Below are positions 12,239-31,690 of a stretch of 40,879 nucleotides of DNA, piece after piece. The number at the start of each line of letters is the position of its first letter. Position 1 is the stretch's first letter. The DNA is taken from contig JAGAOR010000033.1 of assembly GCA_017623605.1 (NCBI GenBank), forward strand, positions 1 to 40,879, in the 5' to 3' direction. The DNA comes from Clostridia bacterium (GTDB lineage: Bacteria > Bacillota > Clostridia > Christensenellales > Borkfalkiaceae). Position numbers and translations under genes: made by a program. The notes beneath the pieces were generated by a model that was not told the origin of the DNA, made no database searches, and saw only the letters and a list, made by a program, of their open reading frames with translations.

Positions 12239-12312
12239 GTGAAATGAACGCTTCGCGTTCGTGAAATGCCCTTTCGGGGCGTGAATTGAAAACCTGTCGG
12301 TTTTCGTGAAAA
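12239..12312 (+). repeat. Stem-loop array with GTGAAWT linkers, short copy
   Basis: Linkers GTGAAAT (12239), GTGAAAT (12261), GTGAATT (12281) and GTGAAAA (12306) alternate with three hairpins: GAACGC/GCGTTC with loop TTC, GCCC/GGGC, and GAAAACC/GGTTTTC with loop TGTC. The array begins 19 bases after the BspA gene and ends just before the next promoter. A related, longer array lies at 31412-31614. Confidence 0.85.
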
Positions 12313-29823: not shown

Positions 29824-29993
29824 TTGCGACATAACTAAATATTCGTCTATAAACGTATGCTCTTGGGTAAGGGTGTACCTTTTCGCGTTTACAAAACTTT
29901 TATAGACGAGTATTTTTTGTAGTTGTGTCGCAGCAAAGCGAAAAAACACTTTTATCGGTGCCGTTTCGTTTTGCGGAGCGGCACTTTTATTTT
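29824..29993 (+). ncRNA. Structured RNA or attenuator leader, new family
   Basis: Arms 29824-29837 and 29920-29933 form a 14-bp stem with two G-U pairs, arms 29843-29853 and 29899-29909 a perfect 11-bp stem, separated by an internal loop. The 45-base apical part can form AAACG/CGTTT and GGTA/TACC helices. An 11-bp terminator hairpin (29958-29968 with 29974-29984) with TTTTATTTT follows. Promoter, fold and terminator give a unit of about 165 bases, either a free small RNA or a leader that ends transcription before the BspA gene. It does not match 6S, SRP, tmRNA, RNase P or a riboswitch I know. A miniature inverted-repeat element is the alternative. Confidence 0.6.
29958..29993 (+). terminator. 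Terminator upstream of the second BspA gene
   Basis: An 11-bp stem beginning GTGCCG and closing CGGCAC, with two wobbles, loop TTTTG, then TTTTATTTT. It lies 33 bases before the BspA start, so it can only end the upstream RNA or act as an attenuator. Confidence 0.8.
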
Positions 29994-29994
29994 G

Positions 29995-30019
29995 CCGTAA
30001 AAAATCATTTTACGGAGGG
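29995..30019 (+). promoter_or_regulatory. Hairpin overlapping the BspA ribosome binding site
   Basis: CCGTAAAA (29995-30002) pairs with TTTTACGG (30008-30015). The last GG is the start of the Shine-Dalgarno GGAGGG at 30014-30019, so the hairpin partly hides it. Confidence 0.55.
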
Positions 30020-30026
30020 TTCTTAT

Positions 30027-30884
30027 ATGAAAAGAACGAAAAAAATTTTAGTAGGTTTGTTGGCAACGTTGAGCGTGCTTTCGGGTGCGCTGGGTTTGGT
30101 AGCTTGCGACAATGGAAGTGAAAGTTCTTCAAGTGTGAGCAATTCAAGTACGCAACAAAGCTCGTCTTCAAACGTTTCTTCGGAAACGGAAAGCAGTTCG
30201 GGTGAAGAAGATAACTCGGGTGAAGAAGTGGGCACTTTCTCGCAAGGATTAGAGTATACATTGCTTGACGACGACGATACATATGAAGTAACGGGGATAG
30301 GTAGTTGCACGGATACGGAGATCGTTATTCCAAGCCGTTATAATGGAAAATCCGTAACTTCTATCGGTATTGGTGCGTTCGAATATTGCGATAGCTTAAC
30401 GAGCGTAGAAATCCCCGACAGTGTAACTTCTATCGGTCGTTATGCGTTCTTTGGTTGCAGTATCTTAACGAACGTGGTCATTCCTGAAAGTGTAATGTCA
30501 ATAGGCTATAGAACGTTTGTTGGTGCTAGCTTACAATTTAACGAATATGGAAATGGAAAATATTTAGGAAGCAAAACGAACGATTATTTTGCTTTAATTG
30601 AAGCAACAAGTACAGATTTGAGTGGTTTCAGCATTCATAACGACACCAAAGTGATTGCAGATTCTGCTTTCTCTAATTGCGATAGTTCGACGTATAACAT
30701 AAAAAACAACTTAAAATATGTAGGAACCAAACAAAATCATTATTTATATTTAGCGGGCGTTAACGATACGTCTATCGCAAGCGCGACAATAGAGAACACT
30801 TGTAAATTTATCGGCTATAGTGCGTTCGAAGATTGCGATAGCTTAGAGAGTTATGCGTTATGCATTGATAGAGATAACTGCTGA
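30027..30884 (+). CDS. BspA-like leucine-rich-repeat lipoprotein, truncated
   Basis: A 285-residue product: signal and lipobox LVAC (C27), a Ser-rich linker, then LRR_5 units of 23 residues ([22 protein letters not shown]) and an island typical of BspA proteins (KYLGSKTNDYFALIEATS, NDTKVIADSAFSNC). ATG 30027 follows GGAGGG. The frame ends at TGA 30882-30884 inside about 101 bases of unrelated sequence, after which LRR units resume in another frame. BspA proteins are surface adhesins or binders; this one is probably broken or short. Confidence 0.8.
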   Translation: MKRTKKILVGLLATLSVLSGALGLVACDNGSESSSSVSNSSTQQSSSSNVSSETESSSGEEDNSGEEVGTFSQGLEYTLLDDDDTYEVTGIGSCTDTEIVIPSRYNGKSVTSIGIGAFEYCDSLTSVEIPDSVTSIGRYAFFGCSILTNVVIPESVMSIGYRTFVGASLQFNEYGNGKYLGSKTNDYFALIEATSTDLSGFSIHNDTKVIADSAFSNCDSSTYNIKNNLKYVGTKQNHYLYLAGVNDTSIASATIENTCKFIGYSAFEDCDSLESYALCIDRDNC

Positions 30885-30946
30885 CGAATAGTCGCAGGCA
30901 TAAACAGCGGTCAGCGGGAACTTTGCGGATATAGTAAAATACGTTA
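30846..30946 (+). other. Insertion-like segment in the BspA gene
   Basis: Between TTA at 30843-30845 and TTA at 30944-30946 lie about 101 bases with no LRR likeness, not a multiple of three and not a whole number of 69-bp units. It holds the inverted arms GCTGAC (30880-30885) and GTCAGC (30911-30916), and stops in the frames on both sides. Confidence 0.65.
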
Positions 30947-31411
30947 ACGAGCATAGAAATTCCCGACAGTGTAACTTCGATCAACTATGCTGCGTTCTAT
31001 TCTTGCGGTAGCTTAACGAGCATAGAGATAGGCGACAGTGTAACTTCTATCGGTTCTTCTGCGTTCTCTTATTGCAGAAGCTTAACGAGCATAGAAATTC
31101 CTGACAGTGTAACTTCTATCGGCAATTATGCGTTTTATGATTGCAGTAGCTTAACGAGCATAGAAATTCCCGACGGTGTAACTTCTATCGGCAATTATGC
31201 GTTCGCTGGTTGCAGAAGTTTGACGAGCATAGAAATTCCCGACAGTGTCACTTCTATCGGCGAGAGTGCGTTCAGTGGGTGCGATAGCTTAACGAGCATT
31301 ACCTTTAACGGCACGAAAGCGCAGTGGAATGCGATCGAGAAAGAAAGCGGGTGGGCGTTCTATGTTCCTGCGACCAAGGTCATTTGCTCGGACGGGGAAG
31401 TGGAATTGTAA
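30938..31411 (+). pseudogene. Detached C-terminal part of the BspA gene
   Basis: From 30944 the frame reads [13 protein letters not shown] and five more units, then [38 protein letters not shown] and TAA at 31409-31411. No ATG with a ribosome site begins it; the first in-frame start-like codon is TTG 31220. The tail is homologous to the end of the BspA gene at 11222 both as protein and as DNA. Confidence 0.8.
30944..31288 (+). repeat. Five 69-bp tandem repeats (LRR units)
   Basis: Units begin at 30944, 31013, 31082, 31151 and 31220, with a sixth, degenerate one at 31289. They are nearly identical (TTAACGAGCATAGAAATTCC as opening). Two related units at 30396 and 30465 lie before the break. 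Such identity favours recombination and copy-number change. Confidence 0.9.
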
Positions 31412-31614
31412 GTGAAATGAACGCAAAGCGTTCGTGAAATGCTCCTTTGGAAGCGTGAATTGAAAACCTGACGGTTTTCGTGGATTGCACGGCGTTGCCG
31501 TGCGTTGTCGAATCATTCCATAACGCGTTGCATTGCAACGCAATTCACGCGAGATTTGCTCGCAATTCATTGAGCGGAACGCGAAAATTCACGCAAACGA
31601 AGTTTGCAATTCAC
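31412..31614. repeat. Stem-loop array with GTGAATT/AATTCAC linkers, long copy
   Basis: It begins one base after the BspA stop. Left half: linkers GTGAAAT (31412), GTGAAAT (31434), GTGAATT (31455), GTGGATT (31480) between hairpins GAACGC/GCGTTC, a GCTCC/GGAAGC stem, GAAAACC/GGTTTTC and GCACGGC/GCCGTGC. Right half: hairpins GCGTTGC/GCAACGC, GCGAG/CTCGC, a weak GCG/CGC and GCAAAC/GTTTGC, followed by the linker in reverse orientation, AATTCAC (31542), AATTCAT (31564), AATTCAC (31586, 31608). The two halves face each other around 31504-31524, where GAATCATTC sits. Confidence 0.85.
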
Positions 31615-31651: not shown

Positions 31652-31690
31652 CCCCGCCGTTTGCGTTTTCGCAAACGGCGGGGTTTCCCT
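31652..31690. terminator. Terminator-like hairpin at the end of the BspA module
   Basis: A perfect 14-bp GC-rich stem (31652-31665 with 31670-31683), loop TTTT, then TTTCCCTTTT. Its core CGCCGTTTG recurs in the valS terminator at 37196-37233. Confidence 0.75.

What the first reader, a model, noticed from the sequence alone, without database searches (positions are those of the whole stretch)
31412..31614. Array of different stem-loops joined by one conserved linker, in two facing halves
Seen directly: at least seven short hairpins whose stem sequences differ from one another, separated by a near-constant 7-mer GTGAAWT. In the left half the 7-mer reads GTGAATT, in the right half it reads AATTCAC, so the halves face each other around 31514. 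In REP/BIME elements the stem is conserved and linkers vary; here it is the reverse. Possible roles (inference): a substrate for a hairpin-recognising transposase or recombinase, an mRNA 3' stability element, or a DNA extrusion site.
Basis: partly seen in the sequence, partly recalled or inferred. Interest (0 to 1): 0.78.

Follow-up and report, generated by a model that had tools for sequence, protein, structure and literature searches.

The report
Hairpin-array repeats linked to four-helix-bundle gene
The array is a gene-less copy of a repeated, probably mobile piece of bacterial DNA whose two facing halves each carry four hairpins joined by a near-constant seven-letter linker, and some relatives of the same design carry a small four-helix-bundle gene of unknown function inside or beside the array.

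Summary
The window has a complete facing array of 4+4 hairpin slots (31412-31614) and a three-hairpin half (12239-12308). The own genome gives 31 linker-spacer-linker hits against 0 in the reversed control; 24 of 31 spacers are clear hairpins (shuffles: at most 2). Related gut Clostridia carry dispersed copies: 20 of 57 genomes of the genus, up to 148 hits. Linkers hardly vary, stems vary with many compensated changes, loops are near random. A second linker (GTGAAGT) marks a parallel subfamily. Left linkers are complementary to right ones, so elements can fold as ladders of four-way junctions. The window array resembles Rfam Gut-1 RNA below its cut-off. In eight loci a PF05635 gene (23S rRNA IVP, four-helix bundle) lies between the halves; linker-hairpin units lie within 350 nt of 19 of 28 such genes in the genus, against 1 of 22 clpP genes. 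Best reading: a gene-less derivative of an IVP-encoding mobile element whose structured arms are the protein's sites. Binding and mechanism are inferred; array-rich genomes without the gene speak against it.

The parts
31412..31614 (.). complete facing element, 4+4 hairpin slots, 203 bp, beginning right after the stop codon (31409-31411) of an LRR reading frame
31412..31503 (+). left half: linkers at 31412, 31434, 31455, 31480 (GTGAAAT, GTGAAAT, GTGAATT, GTGGATT) and four hairpins 31419-31433, 31441-31454, 31462-31479, 31487-31503
   Evidence: exact linker positions
31504..31524 (.). centre, imperfect palindrome GTTGTCGAATCATTCCATAAC; at the matching place IVP-bearing relatives have the region just before the gene's start codon
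31525..31614 (-). right half: hairpins 31525-31541, 31549-31563, 31571-31585 (tandem G.A type), 31593-31607 and linkers at 31542, 31564, 31586, 31608
31410..31490 (+). match to Rfam Gut-1 RNA, 32.3 bits (below the gathering score of 50), E 1.4e-4 for a 421-base search
12239..12308 (+). second copy in the window: three-hairpin left half downstream of another LRR gene
31652..31683 (.). separate perfect 14-bp hairpin followed by T-rich sequence, terminator-like, not counted as part of the element

Best explanation
The array is a non-autonomous (gene-less) copy of a class of small repeated elements whose autonomous members carry a PF05635 four-helix-bundle gene (IVP). SHOWN: the body of the element is two facing half-arrays, most often four hairpins each, joined by a near-constant 7-nt linker; in eight related loci the IVP gene lies between the halves; linker-hairpin arrays with other linkers lie upstream of many other IVP genes; the array label and linker type cluster on the IVP tree; copies are dispersed, patchy and intergenic. 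INFERRED: the IVP protein (five chains in each of two solved relatives) binds the linkers or hairpin feet of the folded strand; a full element folds as five short rungs (four linker pairs plus the centre) joined by four-way junctions; the protein, or a host enzyme that it recruits, copies or moves the folded strand; gene-less copies are or were moved in trans, before the gene was lost from genomes such as this one.
For: IVP gene between facing halves in 8 of 28 genus hits, read by eye: L340, L342, L343, L344, L349, L350, L354, L360. At least 2 linker-hairpin units within 350 nt: 19 of 28 IVP loci in the genus (one, L352, looks like chance), 12 of 30 IVP loci fetched at order level, 1 of 22 clpP, 1 of 9 Y1 loci, shuffles 0.7-2.2% (Fisher p 5e-6 genus vs clpP, 0.004 order vs clpP). 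Array label on the IVP tree: 6 changes, shuffled mean 19.3, 0 of 500 as low. Four linkers per half is the commonest number. Per-site divergence linker 0.036, stem 0.135, loop 0.487; 131 compensated cells against 42 broken and 11 G.T. All four rungs form in 23 of 47 full 4+4 elements; mean gain 20 kcal/mol over local folding. Site polymorphism upstream of clpP. Gut-1 matches at 9 of 20 chosen IVP loci, three loci above the curated score, 0 of 19 controls. IVP element of 1225 bp at 99.3% identity in genomes of two families with unrelated left flanks. Solved relatives 2rld and 2gsc, five chains each.
Against: The own genome, G013, G015 and G033 hold arrays but no PF05635 hit; over 57 genomes arrays (two linkers) and IVP do not co-occur significantly (11 of 26 vs 10 of 31, p 0.58). 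No target-site duplication was seen by eye in the flanks. The IVP copies between fhs-like and glnS-like genes are at the same place in five species, so probably old and vertical. 18 of 30 order-level IVP loci have fewer than two units, among them all six of the YK(D/E)L..W type. In 24 of 47 full elements not all rungs form in the predicted fold, in 7 none. GTGAATT elements in L004, L344 and L062 gave no Gut-1 match at E up to 0.1, so the Gut-1 link rests on the window copy and on arrays with other linkers. The two window copies may have been duplicated together with LRR gene 3' ends. The cross-family copy ends at a contig end and could be mis-binning.
Confidence: 0.55

Rival explanations
1. 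REP/BIME-like repeats spread by a conventional transposase (Y1/RAYT, DDE or other); the IVP genes are passengers that tolerate or exploit the arrays.
For: Facing units, dispersed intergenic copies (of 130: 71 between codirectional, 28 convergent, 17 divergent genes, 11 at edges, 3 inside a frame); arrays without IVP in several genomes.
Against: Y1 not associated; no target duplication seen by eye; IVP sits inside the element in eight loci and linker type clusters on the IVP tree. DDE, serine, tyrosine and IS110 families were not tested.
Confidence: 0.2
2. A structured RNA element: the transcribed array acts as a noncoding RNA or mRNA processing/stability element, as Gut-1 was proposed to be a noncoding RNA.
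For: Gut-1 similarity; several copies lie between genes that I read by eye as parts of one operon; folds strongly as RNA.
Against: The clpP junction is not occupied in the same way in related species; G.U is not favoured over A.C in stems on the gene-sense strand, 14 to 14 with 13 other mismatches; the design reads the same on both strands.
Confidence: 0.15
3. Selfish or neutral palindromes kept perfect by template-switch repair during replication, without any dedicated protein.
For: Compensated changes and lack of strand bias are also what quasi-palindrome correction (recalled mechanism) would give.
Against: Does not explain near-constant linkers, four units per half, or the IVP association; loop inversion, expected from cruciform resolution, is hardly above the null (20 of 1242 differing pairs, 1.6%, against 1.2%).
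Confidence: 0.1

Closest known systems
Gut-1 RNA (Rfam RF01706; listed in PMC2864571)
   Same: Hairpins joined by (G)UGAAAU linkers; the alignment lays its three hairpins on our left half. Arrays with linkers GTGATAT or ATGAAAT beside three IVP genes reach 51.2-52.5 bits, over the curated 50.
   Different: In the passages that I saw it is a noncoding RNA found in environmental sequences only, 'human gut only'; facing halves, a protein partner or mobility are not mentioned there. The window copy is below the curated score, and GTGAATT elements in L004, L344 and L062 did not match.
23S rRNA intervening sequences with IVP/S23p gene (Coxiella IVS, PMC4990558, abstract and outline seen)
   Same: PF05635-type gene inside a foldable selfish element; the abstract says that the frame is undergoing reductive evolution.
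   Different: Ours are intergenic between protein genes, with multi-hairpin arms and a near-constant linker.
REP / BIME / REPIN with RAYT (PMC3733652, abstract and outline seen; PMC3116915 and PMC8266576, listing only)
   Same: Facing palindromic units with a constant unpaired tag next to the hairpin; extragenic; thought non-autonomous.
   Different: Tag is GTGAATT-like, not GTAG/CGTC; stems vary within one element and linkers are near-constant; four hairpins per half; no Y1 partner found.
Avd of diversity-generating retroelements
   Same: One weak PF05635 hit of the genus (L358) fits the NCBIfam Avd model, 37 bits against a cut-off of 80, so the families are near each other.
   Different: That locus has no array, and no reverse transcriptase was sought at array loci.

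Membership tests
REP/BIME/REPIN | conserved stem with GTAG or CGTC tag | tested here: not met
   linker GTGAATT/GTGAAAT; 30 of 31 spacers differ in the own genome
REP/BIME/REPIN | two units in facing orientation | tested here: met
   facing halves; half elements are also common
REP/BIME/REPIN | linked or co-occurring RAYT/Y1 transposase | tested here: not met
   9 of 20 vs 12 of 37 genomes, p 0.40; no arrays at 20 Y1 loci by linker positions; draft genomes
Gut-1 RNA (RF01706) | score at or above the gathering score of 50 bits | tested here: not met
   window 32.3 bits; two G013 arrays with other linkers 47 bits; three IVP-flanking arrays with other linkers 51.2-52.5 bits; GTGAATT elements in L004, L344, L062 none at E up to 0.1
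Gut-1 RNA (RF01706) | three hairpins joined by UGAAAU-like linkers | tested here: met
   alignment
IVP element (PF05635) | carries a PF05635 gene | tested here: not met
   no PF05635 hit in the own genome, which is 81% complete; met in eight relatives of the same design
IVP element (PF05635) | located in 23S rRNA | tested here: not met
   the window copy lies between protein genes and the window has no Rfam match at gathering scores
MITE of a DDE transposon | terminal inverted repeats with target-site duplication | tested here: inconclusive
   facing ends present; no duplication seen by eye in flanks; no exact empty site at nucleotide level obtained
MITE of a DDE transposon | related autonomous DDE transposon | not tested
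   no DDE family search was run

The most novel reading that the evidence does not exclude
A class of mobile elements without a conventional recombinase: the four-helix-bundle pentamer recognises a five-rung ladder of four-way junctions built by linker-linker pairing, with the linker as the code that matches element to protein, and moves or copies it, perhaps through an RNA intermediate with a borrowed reverse transcriptase, as Avd does for diversity-generating retroelements (recalled). Gut-1 RNA and rRNA intervening sequences would be members of this class.
Probability: 0.25. Interest if true: 0.92.

Novelty: new variant of a known kind. Interest (0 to 1): 0.72.

Why it matters
Two orphans, a noncoding RNA family without a known host in the paper that lists it (Gut-1) and a protein family whose function I do not know to be established (PF05635), appear here as parts of one kind of element. 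If right, the question of how IVP-type sequences spread becomes testable with a defined protein, a defined nucleic acid and a built-in specificity code (the linker). A ladder of four-way junctions kept while the stems change would be an unusual case of selection on shape, not sequence.

Tried and rejected
Y1 transposase as partner: rejected. Simple hairpin count near IVP genes: not discriminating (IVP genus 7.6, IVP order 6.2, Y1 6.2, clpP 4.9 hairpins in +-300 nt), so replaced by a linker-aware test. Loop inversion through cruciforms: hardly above the null. mRNA-strand selection: not seen (small counts). Known Rfam family at curated score in the window: none. The search for spaced half arrays gave one gene-bearing element, which led to PF05635. 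Literature searches (open-licence PMC only, no preprints): in what was listed (titles and starts of abstracts) I saw no description of hairpin arrays at PF05635 genes; subscription papers are not covered. Rows dropped: the clpP control used 22 of 30 fetched loci, the Y1 control 9 of 20; pair statistics used only slot groups of at least four similar spacers, which may hide mis-grouped hairpins; the IVP tree left out 1 of 58 proteins (L370, stop inside); the Gut-1 scan used 20 of 58 IVP loci, chosen by me and without seven of the eight loci that have the gene between the halves (L344 was scanned, no match). Of 118 genome contigs stretches (scan stopped at its limit) 80 were scanned, 30 had at least one spacer with a stem of 4 or more, 26 of them from Clostridia-type records (titles).

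Full report
The observation. The window (contig C7 of a 1.36-Mb draft genome, 81% complete) holds at 31412-31614 a 203-bp facing array. Left half: GTGAAAT-hairpin-GTGAAAT-hairpin-GTGAATT-hairpin-GTGGATT-hairpin; centre GTTGTCGAATCATTCCATAAC; right half: hairpin-AATTCAC-hairpin-AATTCAT-unit-AATTCAC-hairpin-AATTCAC. The unit at 31571-31585 (TGAGCGGAACGCGAA) closes only through two G.A mismatches; similar units (TGAGCGTTAGCGAA) recur in other copies. A three-hairpin half lies at 12239-12308. One search shows that its similarity to the main copy begins inside the 3' end of the upstream LRR gene, so this pair may have been duplicated with the gene.

Not chance. The own genome has 31 linker-spacer-linker hits against 0 for the reversed pattern; 24 of 31 spacers carry at least four contiguous Watson-Crick pairs against a mean of 0.17 and a maximum of 2 in 1000 letter shuffles, and 30 of the 31 spacers are different.

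Relatives. In the genus 20 of 57 genomes match, with 1 to 148 hits each, and the reversed control gives 0 in all 57. In the order 16 of 396 sampled genomes match a stricter pattern: the own one and 15 others, 8 of these in family f16. A second linker, GTGAAGT, mostly with T-A instead of G-C closing pairs, gives 5 or more hits in 10 of 57 genomes; 19 of 57 have any, and those with 1 to 3 hits resemble the controls, which reach 2. Both subfamilies occur in G013 and G016, and L336 has both linkers in one element.

Anatomy. Whole elements have sharp outer ends at the first linker, and four linkers per half is the commonest number in G011, G013, G015 and G016 (linkers with up to one mismatch). Half elements that stop at the centre are common. 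Linkers differ least between copies (0.036 per site), stems more (0.135), loops most (0.487); in the stems 131 cells are compensated double changes, 42 are broken and 11 are G.T. The grouping of spacers by 60% identity may mix different hairpins, so the compensated count is an upper estimate. Left and right linkers are complementary; in 23 of 47 full 4+4 elements the predicted RNA fold has all four linker-linker rungs, in 7 none; the mean energy is -79.1 against -58.7 kcal/mol when only local pairs are allowed. In the window copy the predicted fold has only part of the ladder. Folding is predicted, not observed.

Context. Of 130 elements with at least three linkers, 3 lie inside an open frame, 71 between codirectional, 28 between convergent and 17 between divergent frames, 11 at edges (frames called by length only); in the codirectional cases the element begins a median of 30 nt after the upstream stop and ends 83 nt before the downstream start. 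Upstream of clpP (53 of 57 genomes have clpP, 30 loci were fetched; G045 could not be read) both halves of a GTGAATT array, the left one decayed, are in G000 only; G011 and G048 carry what I read as decayed pieces, G040 a GTGAAGT array, and I saw no array of these two linkers in the rest. Copies therefore come and go.

The partner gene. One locus of G016 had left and right halves about 420 bp apart with an open frame between them. It is PF05635, 23S rRNA intervening sequence protein, E 2e-26, and TIGR02436, four helix bundle protein. In the genus 21 of 57 genomes have PF05635, 20 of them over the cut-off (28 rows). In eight of 28 the gene lies between facing halves; the centre motif then stands just before the start codon, as GTTGNGGG, ribosome-binding-like, in four of the eight and as variants in the others (by eye). 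In others an array with a different linker (ATGAAAT, GCGATAT, ATATAAC, GTTATGA) lies upstream. A linker-aware detector finds at least two units within 350 nt in 19 of 28 genus loci, 12 of 30 order loci (of those fetched for 105 positive genomes of 396), 1 of 22 clpP and 1 of 9 Y1 loci. Some loci that look array-like by eye (L341, L353, L364) are not counted by it. On a tree of 57 PF05635 proteins the array label needs 6 changes (at least 4 forced by starred branches) against 19.3 in shuffles, and like linkers group together, though GTGAATT lies on more than one branch and several forks are weakly supported (labels assigned by me). The YK(D/E)L..W type (L366-L371) has 0 or 1 unit per locus.

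Link to Gut-1. Rfam Gut-1 RNA is itself a chain of hairpins with UGAAAU linkers (alignment). It matches the window at 32.3 bits (cut-off 50), two G013 arrays with other linkers at 47 bits, and arrays with linkers GTGATAT and ATGAAAT beside PF05635 genes at 52.5, 51.9 and 51.2 bits; 9 of 20 PF05635 loci have a match at E up to 0.01, against 0 of 19 controls (18 clpP, 1 Y1). I chose the 20 of 58 loci, so the fraction is not an estimate for all. Against it, the GTGAATT elements in L004, L344 and L062 gave no Gut-1 match at E up to 0.1: the likeness is one of design, closest where the linker is GTGAAAT or nearly so.

Mobility. A PF05635 element followed by a methyltransferase-like frame (the NCBIfam matches shown are below their cut-offs) is 99.3% identical over 1225 bp between genomes of two families, with unrelated left flanks; on the right the contig of one ends. 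Against free movement, the element between the genes that I read by eye as fhs and glnS is present in 5 of 51 loci examined, at the same place, with array relics in G029 and G015 and single linkers in G000, G026, G045 and G050 that may be relics or chance. I read this as an old insertion repeatedly lost.

What is weak. No binding, transcript or movement has been shown. Array-rich genomes (G013, G015) lack a PF05635 hit, and presence of arrays and of the gene is not correlated over genomes (p 0.58). No target duplication was seen. Stem mismatches on the gene-sense strand show no G.U preference (14 to 14), which argues mildly for a DNA-level or strand-symmetric constraint. PF05635 genes have a tRNA or tmRNA within the fetched stretch of up to 3.3 kb in 14 of 57 loci, against 1 of 39 clpP and Y1 loci and 0 of 12 array loci of the own genome, which may be a target preference; the clpP controls are one orthologous site and so weak.

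Verdict. A real, repeated, gene-less element; Gut-1-like in design; linked by anatomy and phylogeny to PF05635 genes; most likely a non-autonomous member of an IVP-type mobile element class. The five rungs and the five chains of the solved relatives 2rld and 2gsc are a suggestive coincidence only.

Noticed in passing
window 29925-31411: The BspA-type LRR frame upstream of the array ends at 30884, but LRR-like coding sequence resumes about 60 nt later in another frame and runs to a stop at 31409-31411: broken gene or assembly error.
   Followed up: partly
L338, L339, L374, L377 (downstream of the PF05635 gene): A SAM-methyltransferase-like frame follows the four-helix-bundle gene in one branch and seems to travel with it.
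   Followed up: partly
L341, L346, L348, L351, L352, L356, L361, L364, L379, L380, L386, L390: A tRNA or tmRNA gene lies upstream on the same strand as the PF05635 gene in these 12 of 57 loci (14 of 57 have one anywhere in the stretch).
   Followed up: partly
L343 downstream of the gene: The right half is expanded into nine units of two alternating hairpins with the same linker within 350 nt.
   Followed up: no
L358 (G028): Weak PF05635 hit that fits Avd of diversity-generating retroelements, with repeat-like sequence on both sides.
   Followed up: partly
L025, L024, L026 (G000 contig C20): Arrays in a contig that carries a phage-capsid-like frame (read by eye), so arrays may also enter prophages.
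   Followed up: no
L063, L064, L066, L067 flanks: A second dispersed repeat (TCATTCTGAGCG or TCATCCTGAGCG type) is often adjacent to the arrays in G013.
   Followed up: no
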